From Arthrobacter sp. MYb229 (GTDB lineage Bacteria > Actinomycetota > Actinomycetes > Actinomycetales > Micrococcaceae): a stretch of 64,000 nt of DNA. The notes beneath the pieces were generated by a model. It ran no database searches. It saw only the letters and a program-made list of their open reading frames with translations, and was not told where the DNA came from. The stretch covers positions 868,001 to 932,000 of the forward strand of contig NZ_PCPS01000002.1 in assembly GCF_002975405.1 (NCBI RefSeq), given 5' to 3'. This document shows positions 2,207 through 12,205 of the stretch, piece by piece (position 1 is the first letter of the stretch; each line of letters opens with the position of its first letter). The position numbers and the translations under genes are program-made.

Positions 2207-3769
2207 ATGGGTGCGAACATCACTTGGTATCAACCTCGCCGCCGCCGGGCGTCGGCTGCAGCCATCGTGGCGGCGCTCGCCGTGCTGCTCTCCGGCTGTG
2301 CTCCCACCGAAGGGGCCGAGGACTACCCCGTGCCGCATCACAGCTTCGTCAGTCGCCCGGATCTGACGCCGCCGAAATTGGCAACTTCGCACGGCGAAAC
2401 CGCGGCCGCGAAGCACGGGGGAATGACCGAGTATATTTTCTTGACCCCCGGCTACGAGACCGGCATTCCCTCATCCGGGGCGATGATCTTCGACGCCCAA
2501 GGCGAACTTGTCTGGATGGAACCGATCGACCCGGAGGACCCTAAGGACAACTATTTTGACCTTCGCCCGCAGGAATACCGCGGCGAAACGGTATTGACGG
2601 TCTATCAGGGCACCAGAGACGGAGGCCGCGGCAATGGCGAGATCCTCGTCCTCAACGCCGCCTACGAACAGATTGCCAGTGTCACCACCGGCGGTTCTCT
2701 AGGTCCGGGCAAAGCAGATTTCCACGACTCGACCATCACCGCAGCCGGCACCATGCTGATCGCTTCCTATGTGCCCACCCCGGCCGATCTGTCTGCCGTG
2801 GGAGGCCCGGAGGATGGAAACATCGAAGATGCGGTGATCCAAGAGGTCGACATTGCCAGCGGCGAGGTGATCTTCGAATGGAGCGCGCTGGATCATGTTC
2901 CGCTGACGCAGACGATGCTGGATTTCGACTCCGAACGGGCCGCGCAGACGGAGGACGAGGACGAACTGGGCACCGCGGAAAAGCCTTTTGACTACTTCCA
3001 CATTAATTCGATAACAGAAGACCACGACGGCGCAATTCTCGTCTCGGCCCGGCATACTTCTGCGGTCTACCGGCTGGACCGCACCACCGGGGAGGTGGCC
3101 TGGACGTTGGGTGGATCGGCCAGCGACTTCGATCTCGATGAGGATGCCGTGTTCGCCTGGCAGCATGACGCGCAGCGAGCACCCGACGGGACGCTGACGC
3201 TGCTGGACAACCACGCCAAAGGAGATGAGAGCGAACGGTCCTCCCGGGGGCTGCGGCTGTCACTGGACGAGCGGGCAATGACCGCCTCGGTGGTCACCGA
3301 GTATGCTCCGCCGCAGGAACGGGCGGCCGGCAGCATGGCCAACGCCCAAGAACTGGCCAACGGCAACATGCTCATCGGCTGGGGCTCGCAGTCCTATTTC
3401 TCGGAATACAACCATGATGGTGAATTGCTCTACGATATCTGCCATGGCGATGCCTGCTACCCGGAAGGATTCTCTGGGGGAGGCACCAGCTACCGGGCGT
3501 ACAAGGCTGCGTGGCACGGGCAACCATCGACCGACCCGCAGCTCACGCTCCGGGATCGCACCGCATACGTCTCCTGGAACGGTGCCACCGAGGTCGCGCA
3601 ATGGCGCCTGCTAACCGGGGACGACGCGGCAACCGCAAGCGAACAGGCCACCGTCGAACGGGAGTCCTTTGAAACAGCCATCCCGTTGCCCGGCGATGCA
3701 CGGTACGTCGTTGTTGAAGCCTTGGACGGCAACGGTGAGGTGCTTGGCAGCGCAATGCACCAGGAGTAA
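2207..3769 (+). CDS. Arylsulfotransferase (ASST)-family lipoprotein
   Basis: The 520-residue product starts with an Arg-rich n-region, a hydrophobic stretch and the lipobox LLSGC (Cys about residue 31), so it should be a surface lipoprotein. The body has the repeated blade-like motifs of the arylsulfotransferase_2 family: DFHDSTIT, FDYFHINSI, GAILVSARHTSAVYRLDRTTG, and FAWQHDAQ followed by LLDN. Characterised ASST enzymes transfer sulfate between phenols using an active-site His; which His does this here is not certain. Many actinobacterial members have no known substrate. The start follows GAGG by only two bases, so the ribosome site is weak. No operon partner: the flanking genes are separated by gaps. 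Confidence 0.8.
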   Translation: MGANITWYQPRRRRASAAAIVAALAVLLSGCAPTEGAEDYPVPHHSFVSRPDLTPPKLATSHGETAAAKHGGMTEYIFLTPGYETGIPSSGAMIFDAQGELVWMEPIDPEDPKDNYFDLRPQEYRGETVLTVYQGTRDGGRGNGEILVLNAAYEQIASVTTGGSLGPGKADFHDSTITAAGTMLIASYVPTPADLSAVGGPEDGNIEDAVIQEVDIASGEVIFEWSALDHVPLTQTMLDFDSERAAQTEDEDELGTAEKPFDYFHINSITEDHDGAILVSARHTSAVYRLDRTTGEVAWTLGGSASDFDLDEDAVFAWQHDAQRAPDGTLTLLDNHAKGDESERSSRGLRLSLDERAMTASVVTEYAPPQERAAGSMANAQELANGNMLIGWGSQSYFSEYNHDGELLYDICHGDACYPEGFSGGGTSYRAYKAAWHGQPSTDPQLTLRDRTAYVSWNGATEVAQWRLLTGDDAATASEQATVERESFETAIPLPGDARYVVVEALDGNGEVLGSAMHQE

Positions 3770-3960: not shown

Positions 3961-4017
3961 TTCATTGCCTGAAATCGGCGGAATCCACCATTACCGGATT
4001 CGGCGATCTAACCGCGG

Positions 4018-4062
4018 CGGGGATCCGACATGCATCCCCCAAGATTGCATGTCGGATCCCCG
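4018..4062. terminator. Perfect 17-bp inverted repeat, likely terminator for the leftward protease module
   Basis: Arms 4018-4034 and 4046-4062 are exact reverse complements (outer part CGGGGATCCGACATGCA), with an 11-base spacer. It lies 25 bases beyond the stop of the leftward subtilase at 4087. There is no clear T run, so the terminator role is an inference from position; a protein-binding palindrome is possible. Confidence 0.55.
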
Positions 4063-4086
4063 ATTTCCGCCCCCAGCGGCGCCGGC

Positions 4087-6198
4087 TCAGCGCACCACGA
4101 TGGTGATCGCCTTGCTGGTCCGATCGACGGTGATCTGGTCCCCGCCGGCTCCATTGAGCGCAGGCAGCGCCGCGGGCTCGGCGTTCGGCACCGGCTCGAC
4201 CGGGCTATCCGCGCCAGCGTCCGCACCTTCTACCGGTGGCACGGTCTCGCTCACGCCCTGTGCTTCGTCCAGGACGCCGGCACCGGCGTCGGCCGGCTCC
4301 TGGGCCCCGAGCGGATGCAGCGGTGCACCCGGCCGCCAGAAGGTGTAGCCCCAGTTCGCCGACCACTTATAGGACCACCGCGAGCGGTTCCCGTTGGCCC
4401 GCAGCAGCACGTTCGTGAAGCGCACGTCGTGCCCGCTGCGCGCCAGCATCACCGGGCCGGGATTGCCCGCGAAGCTGAACTGGTCCAGTACGGATCCGTT
4501 CGGAGCGTGCGAGCGGAAGGTCAGTCCGTTCAGCCGCACCGTGTTGATGCCCGGGTTGTAGAGCCGGATGTTGGCGCGGATATAGGTGTCGCGGCCGGAG
4601 CCGAGGAAGACCGGGGTGACCTGGATCGAGTACCAGATCCGGGAAGCGGCCTCGAGCGCCTTGCGGGCGTCGATCCGGCCGAACCCGAAATGCTGGTCCC
4701 GGCCCCCGGAACCCAGGTCCCGCGCCGTCAGCTTGATGATGTCCTCGACCTCCCAGGAGCGCAGCGCCGGATCGACGGCAAGGATCAGCGCCATCAGTCC
4801 CGCGACATGCGGTGTCGCCGAGGAGGTGCCGTTGAACGTGTTCACATAGTTGCCGCCGGAGTAGCCGCCGGATCCCATGATGTCGGTGGTCGGGATCTTG
4901 ACCCCGGGCGCCACCACGTCGACCTGCGGGCCGTAGTTCGAGCCCCACCAGGTCTCGCCGTCGAGGCTGGTCTTGCTCTTGCGCTGGTCCCACTGGTTGC
5001 TGGCCCCGACCGCGAGGAAGCCGCGGATCGAGGGGGAGAGGCGGGCCGGGTAGCCGACCCCGAGAATGTCGCCGTTGCCGGTGGCCGCCGCGATCGGGGT
5101 GCCCCGGCCGCCGCGCCCGGTGGCCTGGGCGTAGCGGAACGCGTTGGTCACCACGGTGCTGGTGGGGCTGCCCCACGAGTTGGACAGCACATCGGCCCCG
5201 AGGTCGACCGCCTTGCGGACGCCGGCGGCGATGATGGCGTCGGTGGTGGACCAGAAGCCGTTGCCGATGCCGTAGGCGATGCGGATGTGCCGCACCCGGC
5301 TGTTCGGCGCGACACCGGCAATGCCGCGCCCGTTGTGGGCGGTGGCCGCGACGATCCCGGCGCAGGCCACCCCGTGGCCATCGGCCGACCTGGGGGCCGG
5401 GTTCGGGTCGTTGAAGCGCGCGTCGTAGCCCGGGGCCAGGACGTAGTCCTCGTGCGCGTTGCCGCCCTCGTCGATGACCGCCACCGAGATGGCGGAGCTG
5501 CCGCGGGTGATGTCCCAGGCCTCGGGGCAGCGGATCTTCCTGATGCCCCACTGCGCCGGCAGCAGCGGGTCGTTGGGCGTGAACGCCGGGCCGGTGCCGT
5601 TCGGCTCGGCCGTTTCCACGAGCTCCTCCAGGGTGCTGGTCAGCCGCGGGGCGATCCGCACGAAGTTCGGCACGGCGTACTCCACGCCCTCCTGCTCGTG
5701 CAGCTCGTTGGCGATGGCCAGCGCGGAGTCCGGCGCGCGGGTGGTGCGCAGCAGGTAAGCGCCGGGCTCCGGGTAGTCCTCCCGGACGGTCTGAAGATGG
5801 TGCTTTTTGATGAGCTTCGCCGCGGCGTCGGCGCCGGGCTCGAACTTGGCGATGAGCTCGCCCTGGTCGATCAGCGCGCTCGGCGCGTCTTCGCCGTCCC
5901 CGGCCTGCGCGGCCACCGGCTCGTAGATGTCCACTGCCCCGGCCTCCGCGGCGGCTTGCGCCCCGGCTGGCCGCGCGAGCGGCGCGTCCTCGACGCGCAT
6001 GACCACGAGGTTCTGGTCGGTGACCCGCAGCAACTGGACCGGGTGCTGCGGGTCGTGGGATGCCGCCGCGGCGCGGGCGTTCATGGCCTCGGCCTGATCC
6101 GCGTCTGCATGGATGGCGACGAAGTTCGGTGATGCGGCCAGCGGAACCCGCTCGCCGTCGGCGTAGTAGTAGGCCTGCGCCTCATTGTTCTCTGACAT
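4087..6198 (-). CDS. S8 (subtilisin-like) serine peptidase, cytoplasmic, module protease 1
   Basis: 703 residues from ATG 6198, chosen because AGGAG stands seven bases upstream; the frame runs 28 codons further but has no better site. There is no signal peptide. The N-terminal ~200 residues (beginning AYYYADGERVPL) look like a long regulatory/pro region. The subtilase core holds the triad: Asp in AVIDEGG (~242), His in DGHGVACAG (~275), Ser in NGTSSATPHVAG (~458), with the oxyanion-hole Asn in SNSWG. The ~150 residues after the core form an extra beta-rich domain, and the tail is acidic. The gene is separated from the CHAT gene by 105 bp that hold a candidate promoter shared with the other subtilase of the module. 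I infer an intracellular protease acting with the CHAT protein. Confidence 0.88.
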   Translation of the reverse strand: MSENNEAQAYYYADGERVPLAASPNFVAIHADADQAEAMNARAAAASHDPQHPVQLLRVTDQNLVVMRVEDAPLARPAGAQAAAEAGAVDIYEPVAAQAGDGEDAPSALIDQGELIAKFEPGADAAAKLIKKHHLQTVREDYPEPGAYLLRTTRAPDSALAIANELHEQEGVEYAVPNFVRIAPRLTSTLEELVETAEPNGTGPAFTPNDPLLPAQWGIRKIRCPEAWDITRGSSAISVAVIDEGGNAHEDYVLAPGYDARFNDPNPAPRSADGHGVACAGIVAATAHNGRGIAGVAPNSRVRHIRIAYGIGNGFWSTTDAIIAAGVRKAVDLGADVLSNSWGSPTSTVVTNAFRYAQATGRGGRGTPIAAATGNGDILGVGYPARLSPSIRGFLAVGASNQWDQRKSKTSLDGETWWGSNYGPQVDVVAPGVKIPTTDIMGSGGYSGGNYVNTFNGTSSATPHVAGLMALILAVDPALRSWEVEDIIKLTARDLGSGGRDQHFGFGRIDARKALEAASRIWYSIQVTPVFLGSGRDTYIRANIRLYNPGINTVRLNGLTFRSHAPNGSVLDQFSFAGNPGPVMLARSGHDVRFTNVLLRANGNRSRWSYKWSANWGYTFWRPGAPLHPLGAQEPADAGAGVLDEAQGVSETVPPVEGADAGADSPVEPVPNAEPAALPALNGAGGDQITVDRTSKAITIVVR

Positions 6199-6252
6199 TG
6201 GATTGCTCCTGGAGCCGATAACGGATGCGGCGCCCCTTTGCGCCGCACCCCC

Positions 6253-6280
6253 TAGGAGCGCCGGCGGCGGCCGGTGATAC
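6253..6280 (-). promoter_or_regulatory. Candidate ECF-sigma promoter of module protease 1
   Basis: Read on the minus strand: GTATCACCG (6280-6272), 13 bases, CTCCTA (6258-6253). The same two blocks with the same 13-base spacing occur upstream of the other subtilase (11391-11364). Block order and a distance of about 16 bases between hexamers fit a -35/-10 pair. A 7-bp hairpin (6227-6246) would lie near the 5' end of the transcript. The promoter role is inferred from conservation within the locus. Confidence 0.6.
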
Positions 6281-6303
6281 ACCGCCGCGCAAAAAGTTTC
6301 CGC

Positions 6304-8796
6304 TCAGCTGCCCGGGCCGGCCCGCCAGTCGGAACCGAACCAGGCGAAGCTGCGCTCCAGCGGCCCGTCGCAGGCCGCGGCGAGCGCCGCGGGCCCCTCC
6401 TGCCCGGAGGCGAGCCGGCGGTGCAGGCCTGCCATGGTCCGCTCGGCCAGGGCGTCGGGGATGTCGGTCAGCGGCGCCACGACGGCGCCCACCCCCATGG
6501 CGAGCAGGCTCGAGGTCAGGCCCAGCGCCTCGTCCCCGGGGCGCAGCCGCCCCCGCCCGGCGCTGCAGGCGGAGAGCACCACCAGCGAGGCGCGGATCGG
6601 CACTTGCTCCAGCTCGTGGGCGAACAGCGAACCGCCGTGCAACCGCAGCGAGGAGAAGAGCGGGCTGTCTTCCCGGTGCTGCCCGTGGGCGGCGATGTGG
6701 ACGACGTCGTAGGCGGCCAGGGCGGCTTTGAGCGCGGCCGGTTCGGCGGGGACCGGCCGGGCGCCGGCCCAGCAGCCGGCCACCGCCGCGCATTCGGTTT
6801 CGGCCAGCGCCAGCCCGGGACCGGCAATCACGGCCACGCTGGGTGGGCCGGCAAGCCTGACGCCGCCGGCAGCCCAAGCCGCAACCGAGCGGCTCAGCGT
6901 GAAACCGCGGTGCCGCAGCCGCGGCAGCATGCCCCAGGGCAGCCTGGCCAGCTCCCCGCTGGGGATGATCACCAGCGGGGCGTTGCCGAGGTCCTCGGGC
7001 AGCACCAGTTGCTCGAGCCGTTGCAGCGCGGCGTTCAGCGAGGAGCGCACCGCGCGGGACAGTGGGCCCGCCGGCGCGTTGCCGGCCGCCGCGGTGTCGG
7101 CCAGGGCGGCGGCGATCAGGTCGGAAACCTCTGCCCGCCCGGCCAGCGGCAGCAACCGCGCCGGAGCGCCAGGTGCCAGCTGCACCAGATGCAGTGCGTC
7201 CGCGGACCAGAAGTAGCTGAGCACGCCCACCGCTGACAGCTCGGCACGGCCCACCGGCCCGGGCAGGCCTTCCGGTTCATGGGTGCGGTGGGTCCAGTGG
7301 TGCTCGCGCAGCTGCCTTTCGATTCTGCCGGCCGCGACGCGCAGGGCACCTGCCGGACCCGGTGCGGCGGTGCGCAGCTCTTCGCGCAGCCGGCGCAGCG
7401 TGGCGAACAGGGCGGCGGCCGCGTCGTCTGCGGGCGGCAGGACGGAGGGCACCTCGGCGAGCGCCGCCCGCCAGCGTTCGGTGGCCCGCAAGGCGGCCCA
7501 GCCGTCGCCGCTGGCAGCCACCCGCTCTAGATCGGAGCGCATGATGGGGGCCAGATGGACCGCGACGGCGGTACGCAGATCCAGGCTTGCCATGCCGGCC
7601 CGGGCGGCGGCGGTATCCCGCGCCGCGGCACGCAGCAGGCGGCCGCGCCGCGCCGGGTCCGTGGTGGTGCAGAGCCCTGCGAGGATGGCCAGCAGGCGCG
7701 TGGAAAGGTAGGGGGAAGCACGCATGCGGCGCAGGCCGCGCAGGGCCTGCGGATCGCCGAGCTCCGGCTCGGGTCCCTCCGCGGCGGCGATCAGCTGCAG
7801 GGCGGCGGCCCGATCCGCGAGCCAGGGCCGTCCGGTGGCTCGGGCGTCGGCGGCCAGGGCCGCGCCCTGCGCCGCAAGCTGCGCTTTCCCGGGCCCGGAG
7901 CCCAGGACCAGCGCTTCGAGCCGTGCGGCCCGGGCCTCCTGGGTGCGGGCCGTTTCGCCGCGCCCCGCGGCCTGCGCCAGGACCTCCTCGGCGAGGCGGA
8001 CCGCCTGGCCGGGGTCTCCGGCGAGCGCGGCGCAGCGGGCCTGGTCCAGCCGGGCTTCGGCCCATTCTTCGGCCAGCCCGGCCAGCTGCAGCTCGACCAC
8101 GGCCTGCTCGAAGAGCTCGGTGGCCTCCTCGATGAGCCCGGCCTCCAGCAGCACGCGCGCGCGGTCGTGGCGCGCGACGGAACGGTCCACCTCGACCTCG
8201 AGCCCGTCGGCTTGTGCCATGAGCTGCAGGGCCGCTGGCAGATCCCCGCGCAGATACTCGACGAATCCCAGGTTGTGCAGCGCCATGAACCGGTAGGCCG
8301 GCAGGTCCTTGCCCAGCTCCGCCGCCGCGCGCAGGTCCGCGGCGGCCTCGGCCAGGGCGCCGGTCTGCGAACCGATGGTGCCCTTGTTCAGCAGCAGCCG
8401 CACGCGGTCATCGAGCGGGAGCCGTGTTGCGTACTTCACCGCGGGCCGCAGCTGTTCCAGCGCCTCCTCGAAGTTTCCGGCTCTGGCGTGGAGCACCCCG
8501 GCCTGGATGCGGGCGAGCGCCACGAGATTGTCGTCTGCGGCGGTGGCGGCTTCCTGCAATACCGCCTCGATCTGCGCCAGCGCCGCGGGAAGCCCGCGCG
8601 CATCGCAGATCAGCCAGGATTCGGTGAGCCGGATCCGCTGATCGAGGTCCATGCGCTCGGGCCGGGGCAGCGCGGCCAGGTGCCGGCGGGCGGTGCCCAG
8701 CAGCGCGCCTGCCTCGGGCAGCCGGTACGCAGCGATGGCCGCCCGGGCGCCCCGGTAGGCTTCGGTTGCCGGCGACAGGTGGTCCTCAAGCGGCAT
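6304..8796 (-). CDS. TPR-CHAT caspase-like protease
   Basis: 830 residues. The first ~450 are an all-helical array of Ala/Leu-rich TPR-type repeats (such as ALARIQAGVLHARAGNFEEAL). The C-terminal ~300 residues are a CHAT domain (caspase HetF associated with TPRs), with the catalytic His in VHIAAHGQH (~704) and Cys in VVLSACSAGRG (~744), and the following GDEALGLTSSLLAMGVGAVV helix region typical of the family. No signal peptide or membrane segment. CHAT proteins are clan CD cysteine peptidases; known cases such as Craspase are activated through partner proteins and cut specific targets. The start lies 2 bp after the stop of the preceding 160-residue gene, so translation is probably coupled. 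Likely targets are the neighbouring subtilases or the small protein; this is inference. Confidence 0.9.
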   Translation of the reverse strand: MPLEDHLSPATEAYRGARAAIAAYRLPEAGALLGTARRHLAALPRPERMDLDQRIRLTESWLICDARGLPAALAQIEAVLQEAATAADDNLVALARIQAGVLHARAGNFEEALEQLRPAVKYATRLPLDDRVRLLLNKGTIGSQTGALAEAAADLRAAAELGKDLPAYRFMALHNLGFVEYLRGDLPAALQLMAQADGLEVEVDRSVARHDRARVLLEAGLIEEATELFEQAVVELQLAGLAEEWAEARLDQARCAALAGDPGQAVRLAEEVLAQAAGRGETARTQEARAARLEALVLGSGPGKAQLAAQGAALAADARATGRPWLADRAAALQLIAAAEGPEPELGDPQALRGLRRMRASPYLSTRLLAILAGLCTTTDPARRGRLLRAAARDTAAARAGMASLDLRTAVAVHLAPIMRSDLERVAASGDGWAALRATERWRAALAEVPSVLPPADDAAAALFATLRRLREELRTAAPGPAGALRVAAGRIERQLREHHWTHRTHEPEGLPGPVGRAELSAVGVLSYFWSADALHLVQLAPGAPARLLPLAGRAEVSDLIAAALADTAAAGNAPAGPLSRAVRSSLNAALQRLEQLVLPEDLGNAPLVIIPSGELARLPWGMLPRLRHRGFTLSRSVAAWAAGGVRLAGPPSVAVIAGPGLALAETECAAVAGCWAGARPVPAEPAALKAALAAYDVVHIAAHGQHREDSPLFSSLRLHGGSLFAHELEQVPIRASLVVLSACSAGRGRLRPGDEALGLTSSLLAMGVGAVVAPLTDIPDALAERTMAGLHRRLASGQEGPAALAAACDGPLERSFAWFGSDWRAGPGS

Positions 8797-8798
8797 AA

Positions 8799-9281
8799 CT
8801 AGAACTCGATGACTGGTGTCAGCACCGGCTTCGCCTCCGGGTCCGCGGGCCGCAGCAGGAACCGGATCGGCCCGTGCGGGATCGAGCGCCAGAGCAGCCG
8901 GCCGTTCACATCCGAGGTTGCCCAGTGCGCGGTGTTGCCCGCGTAGAGCGCCACGTCGAGCCCGCCGCCGGTCACCCAGCCATCCACGCGCAGCGACCCG
9001 TCCGGCTCCGGCGCGGTGGACACCATCAGCTGCAAGGCCGAGCTGGTGAAGGTGACCGAGTCGGTGGCACTGGTTTCGGCGGCGCGCAGCGCCGGAGCCT
9101 GGCCTTCCAGCAATGTGGCAAGCTCCGCATTGAGGGTGGCCAGGGAGAGCGCAAAGAGCACCGTGTCGTCCAGCGTGGGCGGCGGCGGGTCCAAGGTGTC
9201 ATAGATCGCCGCGAGCTGCTCCAGGATCGCGGTATCCAGCCCGTCCAGGGGCCGCTGGTGCGGCTCGAATTGCTCGTTCAT
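8799..9281 (-). CDS. Small protein coupled to the sigma factor; candidate anti-sigma factor or adaptor
   Basis: 160 residues from ATG 9281, which overlaps the sigma-factor stop as ATGA; a TTG 12 bases upstream is less likely. The N-terminal half is acidic and helical (LDDTVLFALSLATLNAELATLL). The C-terminal half looks like a small beta-sandwich of the carboxypeptidase-regulatory type (DGSLRVDGWVTGGG, then DVNGRLLWRSIPHGPIRFLLRP). There is no transmembrane helix and no zinc-binding HxxxCxxC motif, so it is not a classic ZAS anti-sigma factor. Its place between sigma factor and CHAT protease makes it the natural candidate to hold the sigma factor or to be the CHAT substrate. I know of no established function. 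Confidence 0.7.
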   Translation of the reverse strand: MNEQFEPHQRPLDGLDTAILEQLAAIYDTLDPPPPTLDDTVLFALSLATLNAELATLLEGQAPALRAAETSATDSVTFTSSALQLMVSTAPEPDGSLRVDGWVTGGGLDVALYAGNTAHWATSDVNGRLLWRSIPHGPIRFLLRPADPEAKPVLTPVIEF

Positions 9282-9865
9282 TGGGTGCTCCAAGCCGGGT
9301 CGGCGGTCAGGTAGGTGCGCAGGGTGTCCAGGCAGCGCCCGCGGGTGGGGCCGATGGACCCGACCGGGATGCCCAGCGCCGCGGAGAGGGCGGCGTAGTC
9401 CGGCGCTCCGCCGCGGCTGATGACGCGCAGGATGGCCTGGCAGCGCGGCGTCAGCCGGGAAAAGTGCGCCCAGAGCGTGCGCCGGGCCTCATCGCGCAGC
9501 AGCGCCTCGACCGGACCTGGCATGGGACCGGGGCCGAGGTCTGCTGCACCGGGTTCCGGGTTCTCCCAGGGTTGGGTGCGCCCGCGTTCGCGGGCCACGC
9601 GCCAGGCCTCGCGCCGCACCGTGGTGCCCAGCCAGGCGAGCACGGTTTGCGGGTCCCGGATGGTCTCCGCCCGATCCACCAGCCGCAGCCAGGCGGTCTG
9701 GACCACATCCTCGGCGTCGGCGCGCTCGAGCCGGCAGCTGCGCGCCAGATGCCACAGCGTGGGATTCAGCAGCCGCACCAGCTCTTCGAGCAGTTCGCGC
9801 CGGCCGCCGCGGAACTCTTCGAAGAGGGTTGCGGCCCGATCGACGAGGTCAGTATCCCCGGTCAT
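9278..9865 (-). CDS. ECF-like RNA polymerase sigma factor of the protease module
   Basis: 195 residues from ATG 9865, which overlaps the stop of the upstream subtilase as ATGA; upstream codons of the frame are Arg-rich and look non-coding. Region 2 is seen around residues 20-85 (DAEDVVQTAWLRLVDR, TVLAWLGTTVRREAWRVAR) and region 4 around 130-185 (LTPRCQAILRVIS, YAALSAALGIPVGSIGPTRGRCLDTLR), with no region 1 or 3. It should direct RNA polymerase to a small set of promoters. Two identical promoter-like elements in front of both subtilase genes are the obvious targets, giving positive autoregulation. It is coupled to the 160-residue protein downstream. Confidence 0.9.
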   Translation of the reverse strand: MTGDTDLVDRAATLFEEFRGGRRELLEELVRLLNPTLWHLARSCRLERADAEDVVQTAWLRLVDRAETIRDPQTVLAWLGTTVRREAWRVARERGRTQPWENPEPGAADLGPGPMPGPVEALLRDEARRTLWAHFSRLTPRCQAILRVISRGGAPDYAALSAALGIPVGSIGPTRGRCLDTLRTYLTADPAWSTQ

Positions 9866-11331
9866 GGCCGTTTCCAGCCCAGCGTGGTTCCCAGTGCCGT
9901 CCATCCGCGTTCCAGGCGTTCGGCCAGCCCGGTGGCGGCGGTCTCGGCCAGGGCGCGGGCGAGCTCGGCGGCGAGCACCGGGGCGGAGAAGGAGGTGCCG
10001 CTCCACACCCCGAAGCCGCCGGTGAAGTCATCTGGGTCCAGCGTGGCGCGCGGCAGCCCGGAATTCTGCAGGGCGGCGATCATCTGCCGGTCCCCGCCAA
10101 GGTGCGTGGGCATCGTGGAGACCAGCGCCGCGCCGGGGCGGTGGCAGCTGACCCATGGCCCGGCGTTGCTGAAGTAGGCGACGCTGCCGTCCGGGTTCAG
10201 CGCGCCGACCGAGCACAACGGAAGCAGCCCGGCGGCGGCAGGTCCGGCGGCGAAGCCTGCCGGGTACATCGGGGCGGTCGTGGAGTTATTGCCGGCCGAG
10301 GCGACGACCAGCACGCCGAGGCGGCCGAAGTCCTCGAGCAGCGTGCGCAGCGGGGCATCGGCAAGCCGGTCCGCCGGGGCCTCGTGGTAGTAGCCGAGCG
10401 AGAGGCTGAGCACGTCGATGAGCTCCGCCTGGTCTCCGGACGCAAGGGCGGAGAGCTGGCCGGTGCGCAGCGACTGGAGCGTGGCGATCAGGCAGGATTC
10501 GGAAACCACGCCGTCGTCGGCCATGACCGGGATGCCCAGGATGCGGGCCTCGGGGCAGCGTTGGCGGATGAGCCCGGCGATGAACGTCCCGTGGCCGGCG
10601 AAGGGCGGCAGCGTGCCGTCCAGCGGGTTGCGCACCGGTTCGGGGACCGCGCAGCCCGGTACCGTCCCGTGCCGCCCCAGCAGCTGCCCGTCGACGTGGA
10701 CCTCTGCGGTCGCGGTGGCCGGGTCCTGGAACCAGGGATGCTGCTCCAGGCCGGTGTCCGGCACGACCACCACGGGCGCGCGCTTGGTGCGCGGGCGGCC
10801 GTCGAGCGGGTCCGGCAGCACCACCGACACCGGGGTCCGACCGCCCATCCCCGGTGCTCCGTAGCTGGTGGCCGGCGCCCCGGCGACGCCAGCGTAATAA
10901 GGCACGCCCGCATAGTAGGGCACCCCGGCGTAGTACGGGGTGGCGACCAGCGCGTGGTCCAGGGCCACCCCGTCAGCGGCCCCCGCCCGGCGCAGCCGCC
11001 TCAGCAGCTGCCAGGCGTCGACATCCTCCGGGTCGCCATGCAGCACCAGCCGGCTGACCGGCGGTGCGAGCTTCACCGGGGCCTGTTCCCGGCCGGGCTC
11101 GATGCCCAGCGGCGTGGCCTCCACCTTGATCCCCAGCTCACCGGCCACCTTGTTGATGGCTGCGAGGCGGCCGGCGATCGTGCTCGGCTCCGCTAGGAGC
11201 AGCAGGGAATTGGCCACATAGGCGGTCGCACCGCCGGAATGCGGCACCACCGTGCGAAAGTTCCAGGCCGCTGCGACCAGCGGGTCAAGGTGGGGGAAGG
11301 GATTGCTGGCGACGGTCAAGTGCTCGGTCAT
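9862..11331 (-). CDS. S8 (subtilisin-like) serine peptidase, module protease 2
   Basis: 489 residues from ATG 11331, with GAGAGGA about seven bases upstream. No signal peptide. The triad is visible: Asp in VVVPDTGLE (~192), His in FAGHGTFIAG (~247), Ser in WSGTSFSAP (~447), and the oxyanion-hole Asn in ASAGNNST. A short Tyr/Pro/Gly repeat (YYAGVPYYAGVPYYAG) lies between the N-terminal ~160-residue pro-like region and the core and may be a flexible, cleavable linker. First gene of the leftward operon, joined to the sigma factor by ATGA. A promoter-like element shared with module protease 1 lies 33 bases upstream of the start. Likely intracellular; substrates unknown. Confidence 0.88.
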   Translation of the reverse strand: MTEHLTVASNPFPHLDPLVAAAWNFRTVVPHSGGATAYVANSLLLLAEPSTIAGRLAAINKVAGELGIKVEATPLGIEPGREQAPVKLAPPVSRLVLHGDPEDVDAWQLLRRLRRAGAADGVALDHALVATPYYAGVPYYAGVPYYAGVAGAPATSYGAPGMGGRTPVSVVLPDPLDGRPRTKRAPVVVVPDTGLEQHPWFQDPATATAEVHVDGQLLGRHGTVPGCAVPEPVRNPLDGTLPPFAGHGTFIAGLIRQRCPEARILGIPVMADDGVVSESCLIATLQSLRTGQLSALASGDQAELIDVLSLSLGYYHEAPADRLADAPLRTLLEDFGRLGVLVVASAGNNSTTAPMYPAGFAAGPAAAGLLPLCSVGALNPDGSVAYFSNAGPWVSCHRPGAALVSTMPTHLGGDRQMIAALQNSGLPRATLDPDDFTGGFGVWSGTSFSAPVLAAELARALAETAATGLAERLERGWTALGTTLGWKRP

Positions 11332-11363
11332 GATGGTCCTCTCAAGGTCGAGTTCTTGAGACT

Positions 11364-11391
11364 TAGGAGGGATGAGGCTCCGCGGTGATAC
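11364..11391 (-). promoter_or_regulatory. Candidate ECF-sigma promoter of the subtilase-sigma-CHAT operon
   Basis: Minus strand: GTATCACCG (11391-11383), 13 bases, CTCCTA (11369-11364). It is identical in both blocks and in spacing to 6280-6253. The intervening 13 bases and the flanks differ, so the conservation is specific to the two blocks. Predicted transcription would begin about 25 bases before the start codon. Confidence 0.62.
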
Positions 11392-11548
11392 ATCAATGCT
11401 GGAACAGAATTTTCGGCACCATTCCAATATGCCTGCATCCTACGCCGGATCCGGGTTCCGCGCACCGCTGGAGCGCCTGCTCAAGGCGCAGCCCCGGCCC
11501 ATGCAATGGGCTAGCGGAGCAGGGCAGGGGCGCCGCACATAGAATGAA

Positions 11549-12205
11549 GTGGTGAGCGAGCAAACTGAACGAGAACTTTTCGAATTAGTGCAACCCATCA
11601 TCTTGCGGATCGATAAGGAAGATCCGTCTACCGAGGATGAAGGGATCTCGGCGGTGGCCCGGGCCGCGGTCATTGCCTACCTGCAGAATCCGCAGAACCC
11701 GGAATGGCAGACCTGGGCTAGCCAGGCCTTCGCGAAATCGGTGCGCCGCGCGAATCCGAAGATGTTCGCCAAGGTCTTGGAAATGTTCCCCGAACAGATG
11801 ATCAGCGAGGTGGGCAAGGCCCAAGCCGTCGGGTTGCCACCGCTTCCCGCCACGGACTTGCCCAAGCTGATCGCCAAGCTGCAGGTCTCCGGAACCGAGC
11901 TGCCAAAAAGCGACGAGGCGCTGGTCGCCTCGGTGAACATCGTGCTGAACAAGTCCTTGGACATGTCTACGGGTAAAGCCGCCGCGCAAGCAGCCCATGC
12001 GCTCTTCGCCTGGCTGACCGAGGCACGGCCAACCATCATCGAAGGTTGGCTCAAAGTCCACGCGCCGGTTGGCATCAAGCAGCTGCCGCGCAACGAGTTT
12101 GATCGGCTCTCCGCTCAAGCGTCCGGTCCGGTGATCCAGGACGCCGGGCGAACCGAAATTGAACCCGGCTCGACCACCGCATTTGTTCTCTGCGCTGAGT
12201 CGTAG
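11549..12205 (+). CDS. Peptidyl-tRNA hydrolase 2 (PTH2)-family protein
   Basis: 218 residues; GTG GTG at the start leaves a one-codon ambiguity, and there is no strong ribosome site. The C-terminal half has the PTH2 signatures: MSTGKAAAQAAHAL, where PTH2 has the GK.AAQ.aHA helix, and VIQDAGRTEIEPGSTTAFVL, the conserved DAGRTQI.PGS strand. The first ~110 residues are not part of the catalytic fold and are helical. PTH2 cleaves peptidyl-tRNA and recycles tRNA; it is usual in archaea and eukaryotes, while bacteria normally rely on Pth. Members of this extended type occur in actinobacteria. Whether this one still acts on peptidyl-tRNA is not known. Confidence 0.8.
   Translation: MVSEQTERELFELVQPIILRIDKEDPSTEDEGISAVARAAVIAYLQNPQNPEWQTWASQAFAKSVRRANPKMFAKVLEMFPEQMISEVGKAQAVGLPPLPATDLPKLIAKLQVSGTELPKSDEALVASVNIVLNKSLDMSTGKAAAQAAHALFAWLTEARPTIIEGWLKVHAPVGIKQLPRNEFDRLSAQASGPVIQDAGRTEIEPGSTTAFVLCAES

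What the first reader, a model, noticed from the sequence alone, without database searches (positions are those of the whole stretch)
4087..11391. Self-regulated intracellular protease module: sigma factor + two subtilases + CHAT caspase-like protease + unknown 160-residue partner
Five leftward genes, three of them proteases of two unrelated classes, none exported, are tied to a dedicated ECF-like sigma factor by ATGA overlaps (11331 > 9862/9865 > 9278/9281 > 8799, then 2 bp to CHAT). Both subtilase genes carry the same promoter-like element. CHAT proteases in known systems cut partners on a signal, and the TPR half offers a sensor or docking surface. The layout suggests a feed-forward proteolytic cascade: the CHAT protease or a subtilase destroys an inhibitor of the sigma factor, and the sigma factor makes more protease. 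Possible outcomes are regulated cell death, phage defence or a stress/development switch. I know of CHAT and subtilase genes in conflict-system surveys, but not of this exact module being characterised.
Basis: partly seen in the sequence, partly recalled or inferred. Interest (0 to 1): 0.9.

Follow-up and report, generated by a model that had tools for sequence, protein, structure and literature searches.

The report
Self-amplifying protease circuit with repeat-tagged subtilase
A conserved bacterial gene set in which a dedicated sigma factor appears to switch on its own operon and two protease genes, one protease carrying exact short peptide repeats at its activation site; it is widespread in actinobacteria and I found no test of what it does.

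Summary
In detail: five leftward genes (subtilase SubB, ECF-like sigma, 160-aa protein, TPR-CHAT protease, subtilase SubA), intact active sites, no export signals. SubB-sigma-small-CHAT is an actinobacterial module: 129 of 151 distinct fetched loci hold all four. SubA is a rare addition. The review PMC8999054 already notes CHAT and subtilase genes around group ECF54 and proposes, untested, proteolytic control.

New here: (1) A promoter, TGTATCA-N16-CTC[CT]TA, precedes both subtilase genes; these are its only two perfect sites in the 4.0-Mb genome, with no one-mismatch site. Sigma-bearing loci have the core motif in 110 of 139, sigma-less loci in 2 of 12. The circuit looks closed and self-amplifying. 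(2) SubB models as a pro-subtilisin whose prodomain/catalytic junction carries tandem repeats (PYYAGV x3 here). 94 of 140 distinct SubB proteins have such arrays; units are lineage-specific and their codons randomised, so old and selected. (3) In relatives the same motif precedes other protease genes and, in some, APH or HopA1 genes.

Best reading: CHAT is triggered, removes an inhibitor (perhaps the small protein), sigma amplifies the proteases, as in type III-E CRISPR. Trigger, inhibitor and outcome are unproven.

The parts
11364..11392 (-). sigma-type promoter of the SubB-sigma-small-CHAT operon, TGTATCA-N16-CTCCTA
   Evidence: perfect match, one of two in the genome; conserved upstream of SubB in relatives
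9862..11331 (-). SubB: intracellular pro-subtilase with prodomain, junction repeats and intact catalytic site
   Evidence: Pfam S8; AF2 model pLDDT 91.2; best PDB matches include unprocessed pro-subtilisins
10885..10938 (-). three tandem PYYAGV units at the prodomain/catalytic junction of SubB (residues 132-149)
   Evidence: pLDDT below 50 at residues 134-150
9278..9865 (-). ECF-like sigma factor
   Evidence: TIGR02937 E 1.2e-13, over cut-off; Sigma70_r2
8799..9281 (-). small 160-aa protein: two N-terminal helices plus seven-strand beta sandwich; candidate sigma inhibitor or adaptor (inference)
   Evidence: no family match; AF2 pLDDT 89.8; 71 relatives aligned, window included
6304..8796 (-). 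TPR-CHAT cysteine protease, His704/Cys744
   Evidence: Pfam CHAT; conserved residues
6253..6281 (-). second copy of the promoter, TGTATCA-N16-CTCCTA, upstream of SubA
   Evidence: perfect match, the other of two in the genome; conserved upstream of SubA in relatives
4087..6198 (-). SubA: second subtilase, in a motif-bearing slot after CHAT that holds other genes in some relatives
   Evidence: Pfam S8 and Fervidolysin_NPro; slot contents

Best explanation
A self-contained, self-amplifying intracellular proteolysis circuit. Supported by sequence: the sigma factor recognises GATGTATCAG-N15-CTC(C/T)T-type promoters before its own operon and before SubA, and has no other perfect or one-mismatch site in this genome, so activation makes more sigma, more CHAT, more SubB zymogen and SubA. 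Supported by model: SubB has the pro-subtilisin architecture, with a repeat array at the junction where such zymogens are cut. Inferred: a signal read by the TPR half switches on CHAT; CHAT (or SubB) removes the protein that restrains sigma, most likely the small protein encoded directly after it; sigma then drives a burst of zymogen, which CHAT or the subtilase itself activates at the repeat junction. Inferred: the result is wide or targeted intracellular proteolysis (death, dormancy or a developmental/stress switch), with the output varied through the motif-bearing cargo slot.
For: Two perfect promoter sites in 4.0 Mb, both in the module, none with one mismatch. Core motif in 110 of 139 sigma-bearing against 2 of 12 sigma-less distinct loci (Fisher p 2.2e-5); 185 sites in 2.51 Mb of fetched loci against 7 in one Markov replica. 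Four-gene core in 129 of 151 distinct loci (summed from the order table). The 40 loci L184-L223, fetched through SubB hits (40 of 57 hits with E 1.4e-53 or better, own included), all hold CHAT (161 of 161 loci). The small gene follows sigma closely, 66 of 136 with a 4-nt overlap, the usual place of an anti-sigma gene (general knowledge). Pro-subtilisin fold. Precedent: Csx29 (TPR-CHAT) cleaves Csx30, inhibitor of the ECF factor CASP-sigma, whose motif lies in its own locus (PMC10028731, passages). Solved chains named 'CHAT domain protein', which I take from memory to be Csx29, match the CHAT part at E about 0.02.
Against: No binding, cleavage or expression data. The small protein has no detectable relation to a known anti-sigma factor or to any solved protein (no fold match at E 0.001; no sequence match below E 0.09). 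29 of 139 sigma-bearing loci lack the strict motif. In one search the sites with up to two mismatches (22) are fewer than for the reversed control pattern (113), so only the perfect sites carry weight. Across 26 genomes eight perfect sites lie outside the module, so the regulon may be wider in some relatives. The published guess for ECF54 runs the other way: proteases keep sigma inactive by degrading it (PMC8999054).
Confidence: 0.42

Rival explanations
1. Negative feedback: the CHAT protease and subtilases degrade sigma (or the small protein is an activator or adaptor), so the loop gives a short pulse or keeps the system off, as reviewed for ECF54.
For: Proposed in print for ECF54 from gene context (PMC8999054, passages). 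Proteases in the same sigma-driven operon could as well limit sigma as release it.
Against: A conserved separate small gene directly after sigma is not needed in this model; the tested TPR-CHAT/ECF precedent acts by destroying an inhibitor.
Confidence: 0.2
2. SubB is a precursor that releases several copies of a short lineage-specific peptide (a signal, inhibitor or cofactor) when its junction array is cut; the protease domain is the maturation enzyme.
For: 94 of 140 distinct SubB proteins have tandem units at the junction; 71 distinct units among 96 arrays; codons of the units are randomised (58% identical against 56% expected), so the copies are held by selection; the unit changes with lineage as peptide signals do.
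Against: No second copy of a unit was found in other ORFs of the fetched loci (0 hits, units of six or more residues); receptors and exporters were not searched for. 44 of 140 SubB proteins lack an array at the score 6 cut, 36 of them in loci with sigma. No cleavage signal separates units (by eye).
Confidence: 0.2
3. The array is a multivalent docking or condensing segment: aromatic residues at about six-residue spacing bind the TPR superhelix of CHAT or bring zymogens together so that they activate each other.
For: 92 of 96 units hold Y, F or W, 91 of them one or two; Gly, Tyr and Pro are the commonest residues and none holds Cys; the segment has pLDDT below 50 in the model; TPR folds bind short peptides (general knowledge).
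Against: Strict identity of whole units within a gene is more than stickers and spacers should need; co-variation with TPR surfaces was not tested.
Confidence: 0.2
4. Phage-defence module in which CHAT triggers suicide proteolysis.
For: Patchy in the own genus (1 of 18) and shared as one block with a relative whose flanks differ; SubA matches a PADLOC model named 'subtilase' at E 1.4e-17 and CHAT part of BovA at E 9.5e-5.
Against: Those matches may be general subtilase and CHAT homology, and no PADLOC system is met; about 22 loci keep the module at one ribosomal/RNA-polymerase-type site (genes recognised by eye), unlike a typical defence island.
Confidence: 0.15

Closest known systems
ECF54 sigma factor group and its gene context
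   Same: ECF sigma with CHAT and subtilase genes in its context, and a 'carboxypeptidase' protein that may be the small beta-sandwich protein (my inference; PMC8999054, passages)
   Different: The passages I saw give no promoter, repeats, cargo slot or inhibitor; group membership was not tested with the group's own model
Type III-E CRISPR CASP (Cas7-11/Csx29/Csx30/CASP-sigma)
   Same: TPR-CHAT protease, ECF sigma with sites in its own locus, a further protein between protease and sigma
   Different: No CRISPR effector among the proteins scanned; added subtilases; small protein without a match to a solved protein
Pro-subtilisins (e.g. pro-Tk-subtilisin, pro-subtilisin E)
   Same: Prodomain plus catalytic fold, junction at the processing site
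   Different: No secretion signal; tandem lineage-specific repeats in the junction
Class V lanthipeptide enzymes (relatives only)
   Same: APH-like kinase and HopA1-like lyase genes near each other (PMC9486802, passages)
   Different: LanC_like gene and a trypsin-like protein with a Cys/Thr-rich tail, no short precursor identified; none of these among the window proteins scanned

Membership tests
ECF54 sigma group | ECF sigma architecture | tested here: met
   TIGR02937 51.0 bits over cut-off 42.9, residues 26-187
ECF54 sigma group | CHAT and subtilase genes conserved in the context | tested here: met
   129 of 151 distinct loci hold all four genes; the loci were fetched through CHAT, SubB or small-protein hits, so this is conditional
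ECF54 sigma group | carboxypeptidase(-like) gene in the context | tested here: inconclusive
   small protein has a C-terminal beta sandwich but no Pfam or NCBIfam match
ECF54 sigma group | match to the group's own profile or model protein SFT86700.1 | not testable with these tools
   profile not at hand; the classification papers are not held
Type III-E CASP | TPR-CHAT protease with catalytic His and Cys | tested here: met
Type III-E CASP | ECF sigma with promoter sites in its own locus | tested here: met
   (motif only, no binding test)
Type III-E CASP | Cas7-11 effector and CRISPR array | not tested
   no cas-like family among the eight proteins scanned at 2.2-14.5 kb; no array search made
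Type III-E CASP | Csx30-like inhibitor | tested here: inconclusive
   small-protein profile has no PDB match below E 0.09; whether Csx30 is among the chains was not checked
Subtilase S8 zymogen | catalytic triad, oxyanion Asn, prodomain | tested here: met
   D 139, H 140, N 140, S 140 of 140 distinct SubB proteins; pro-subtilisin fold
Known anti-phage systems (PADLOC 2.0) | set of proteins that make up a listed system | tested here: not met
   six proteins scanned: SubA to a model named 'subtilase' E 1.4e-17 (281 of 391 positions), CHAT to BovA E 9.5e-5 (74 of 711 positions), sigma E 0.0066 and SubB E 0.01 to single models, small protein and PTH2 none
Class V lanthipeptide system | LanK/LanY-type genes at the window locus | tested here: not met
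   none among the eight proteins scanned at 2.2-14.5 kb; the rest of the window was not scanned; present in relatives

The most novel reading that the evidence does not exclude
SubB is a new kind of self-processing zymogen: a protease fused to a tandem array of exact, lineage-coded hexapeptides at its activation site, made under a closed sigma loop and released by a CHAT protease. The array is read as a unit, either as a multi-copy peptide product or as a lineage-specific key between protease partners. Related protein-tail arrays in relatives (PFTE, ACPTLAC on trypsin-like proteins) would make this a wider class in which proteases carry repeat or lanthipeptide-like tails.
Probability: 0.3. Interest if true: 0.87.

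Novelty: new variant of a known kind. Interest (0 to 1): 0.7.

Why it matters
It gives a widespread sigma/CHAT/subtilase context, uncharacterised in what I could read, a testable wiring diagram: named promoters, a two-site regulon, a candidate inhibitor, a zymogen with a strange junction, and a variable output slot. If CHAT releases sigma here, the logic shown for type III-E CRISPR would be a general bacterial caspase-like switch free of CRISPR. The codon-randomised identical repeats are hard to explain by known subtilase biology and open a new question about how proteases are activated or what peptides they release.

Tried and rejected
Tried and rejected: (1) The divergent PTH2 gene (11549-12205) as part of the module: it is in 18 of 18 genus genomes while CHAT is in 1 of 18, and no PTH2 relative was found in the 40 relative loci. 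(2) Five genes as the unit: SubA passed the strict score in 6 of 161 loci (L034 and L105 are one genome, so five distinct), with a more distant subtilase in the same slot in L111. (3) SubB repeats as lanthipeptide cores: weakened, not excluded. In the 8 loci with at least three of the four genes trypsin-like/APH/HopA1/LanC-like, 7 SubB units lack Ser, Thr and Cys; over the 15 loci with any of these genes and an array, 8 lack Ser and Thr and 7 have one (counted by me; no unit of 96 has Cys). (4) DNA slippage as the recent source of the repeats: codons are randomised. (5) The unit elsewhere in the locus as a partner: 0 hits. (6) Remote sigma targets: in 26 genomes with up to one mismatch there are 67 sites against 37 for the reversed pattern (summed by me); eight perfect sites lie outside the module, with a rough expectation of about three (my estimate, not a call); the genes after them are mixed; not used. 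(7) A gene in the Microbacteriaceae-type slot after CHAT: no clear ORF. (8) The one 'phage' hit (MT838002) is an unverified 7.5-kb faecal contig without annotation; not used.

Bias and dropped rows: 161 loci were cut to 151 by identical CHAT ends and 149 SubB loci to 140 by identical ends; L154 was dropped because its repeat lies away from the junction. Arrays were found by amino-acid identity, so the low count of amino-acid differences within them (20 pairs) is partly by construction; the randomised codons are the independent part. ORF calls in fetched loci are mechanical, so the cargo lists include false frames. The Pfam matches of the trypsin/Nal1-like and papain-like cargo proteins are below Pfam's cut-offs. 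The script stopped with an error after the results cited; the rest was redone.

Papers: PMC8999054, PMC10028731, PMC8195603 and PMC9486802 were seen as passages only. Casas-Pastor 2021 and Huang 2015 were not held. What I call not in print rests on the searches in an open-licence library.
Full report
What is there. SubB, sigma and the small gene are joined by ATGA overlaps, CHAT follows after 2 bp, and SubA starts at 6198, 105 bp after CHAT, with its own promoter in the gap. Families: two Peptidase_S8, one ECF-type sigma (TIGR02937 over cut-off), one TPR-CHAT; the small protein has no match in Pfam, NCBIfam or PADLOC. Catalytic residues are conserved: CHAT His and Cys in 41 of 41, SubB Asp in 139 and His, Asn and Ser in 140 of 140 distinct proteins. 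No protein has a hydrophobic N-terminal stretch.

Conservation. The small protein was found in 2 of 149 genomes of the own family, CHAT relatives in 115 of 296 genomes of the class (any match at E 0.001), and SubB relatives in 93 of 396 genomes of the order (weak generic subtilases included). With stretches taken from these I had 161 loci, 151 of them distinct. All four core genes are in 129 of 151 (summed from the order table). The commonest orders are SubB-sigma-small-CHAT (56) and sigma-small-SubB-CHAT (46); the window's five-gene order is in 5, one of them (L111) with a more distant subtilase in SubA's place. The loci were chosen by CHAT, SubB or small-protein hits, so joint presence is conditional on that; still, the 40 loci fetched through SubB hits all hold CHAT. 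Of all 161, 139 have the four genes, ten lack a nearby SubB, eight have CHAT and SubB only, two lack only sigma, and two have CHAT alone.

Distribution and mobility. In the own genus CHAT is in 1 of 18 genomes, the neighbour PTH2 in 18 of 18. In a relative without the module (L235), the sequences matching window 3932 and 11530 lie 396 bp apart, where the window has 7.6 kb. Paeniglutamicibacter quisquiliarum (L110) shares one block, window 4016-11455 at 83% identity, and no flank within the 18.5 kb held, which suggests that the five genes moved as a unit. By contrast about 22 loci hold the module beside genes that I recognised by eye as ribosomal protein and RNA polymerase genes (no family search), which points to long vertical descent there.

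Promoter and regulon. TGTATCA-N16-CTC(C/T)TA lies before SubB (11364-11392) and before SubA (6253-6281). In the 4.0-Mb genome these are the only perfect sites; none has one mismatch; with up to two mismatches there are 22 sites in all, against 113 for the reversed pattern, so the weaker sites carry no weight. Over the 161 loci the core motif occurs 185 times in 2.51 Mb against 7 in one Markov replica, 165 with spacer 16. It is in 110 of 139 sigma-bearing distinct loci and 2 of 12 without sigma (p 2.2e-5). 154 distinct N16 sites give GATGTATCAG-N15-CTC(C/T)T. Self-activation by this sigma is therefore well supported, though no binding was measured. In 26 genomes eight perfect sites lie outside the module; a wider regulon in some relatives is not excluded.

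SubB and its repeats. The model of SubB (pLDDT 91.2) is a pro-subtilisin; the best PDB matches include unprocessed pro-subtilisin E and pro-Tk-subtilisin. Between prodomain and catalytic Asp, residues 132-149 are PYYAGV three times. Of 140 distinct SubB proteins 94 have an array scoring 7 or more at this place, against 0 of 2,800 shuffles and 0 of 140 catalytic parts. Among 96 arrays counted at score 6 or more, the unit is 5-12 residues long (6 in 67), with 2-11 copies and 71 distinct units. Units turn over with distance: the same unit in 4 of 8 pairs at 80-90% catalytic identity, 28 of 53 at 70-80%, 18 of 82 at 60-70%, 3 of 304 at 50-60%, 0 of 2,916 at 40-50% and 3 of 1,193 at 30-40%. Within 94 genes, 2,090 neighbouring codon pairs keep the amino acid while 58% keep the codon, against 56% expected from codon usage. 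The copies are thus old, and selection holds them. A set of redundant cut sites would be expected to decay; this favours a function of the whole array (inference).

Small protein. The model has two N-terminal helices and a seven-strand beta sandwich (pLDDT 89.8). No fold match reaches E 0.001 and no sequence match is below E 0.09. Its gene follows sigma closely, 66 of 136 with a 4-nt overlap. It is my candidate for the inhibitor of sigma; this is inference.

Output slot. After CHAT, or divergently from the operon, some relatives carry other genes behind the same motif. Of 20 such proteins scanned, Pfam finds other subtilases (L111, L206), a CHAT-TCAD7 protein (L197), an AAA/LuxR-type regulator (L068), APH kinases (L126, L128, L179), HopA1 proteins (L132, L208), and, below its cut-offs, trypsin/Nal1-like (L138, L151) and papain-like (L050) proteins. 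Tessaracoccus and relatives have a protein of about 725 aa without Pfam match for the one scanned (L106). The trypsin-like, APH, HopA1 and LanC-like genes occur together in L138, L187 and L195, and three of the four in L141, L153, L179, L192 and L221 (LanC_like confirmed by Pfam in L187, L129 and L143). This recalls class V lanthipeptide dehydration by an APH-like kinase and a HopA1-like lyase (PMC9486802, passages). The window has none of these among the eight proteins scanned.

How it most likely works. Shown by sequence: closed sigma loop, zymogen architecture, conserved active sites, variable output. Inferred: signal to TPR-CHAT, removal of the small protein or another inhibitor, burst of sigma, activation of SubB at the array, proteolysis as output. 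The nearest tested example is type III-E CRISPR, where Csx29 cleaves Csx30 and relieves an ECF sigma (PMC10028731, passages). The review of ECF54 proposes that proteases keep sigma inactive (PMC8999054, passages); the sign of the feedback is open.

Verdict. The module family is known as a gene context; the promoter pair, closed regulon, codon-randomised junction repeats and cargo slot were not in what I could find (searches named in Tried and rejected). I rate it a new variant of a known kind, interest 0.7.

Noticed in passing
L187:8816-13481, also L138 and L195: Row of trypsin-like protein with Cys/Thr-rich tail, APH kinase, HopA1-like and LanC_like genes beside the module: looks like a lanthipeptide-type enzyme set that might act on the protein's own tail.
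   Followed up: partly
L136:4403-6376, L151:4157-6397, L179:2238-4586: Trypsin-like proteins whose C-terminal tails are tandem repeats (PFTE, ACPTLAC).
   Followed up: partly
L106, L116, L117, L122, L158, L160 after CHAT: Protein of about 725 aa containing AQAMGPTYAGG or VQAMGPTYAGG near its start, behind the sigma motif, no Pfam match for the one member scanned (L106).
   Followed up: partly
L117:15245-16978, L160:8672-10540: Caspase-domain (Peptidase_C14) proteins with peptidoglycan-binding domains a few kb from the module.
   Followed up: no
L126, L128, L136, L166 and about 18 more loci: Module nested among genes recognised by eye as ribosomal protein and RNA polymerase genes.
   Followed up: no
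window 2207-3769: Arylsulfotransferase-type (ASST) gene next to the module, found in 1 of 18 genus genomes, the own one.
   Followed up: partly
L299:6288: Perfect sigma-motif site upstream of a regulator-like gene and genes that resemble a contractile injection system tube (by eye).
   Followed up: no
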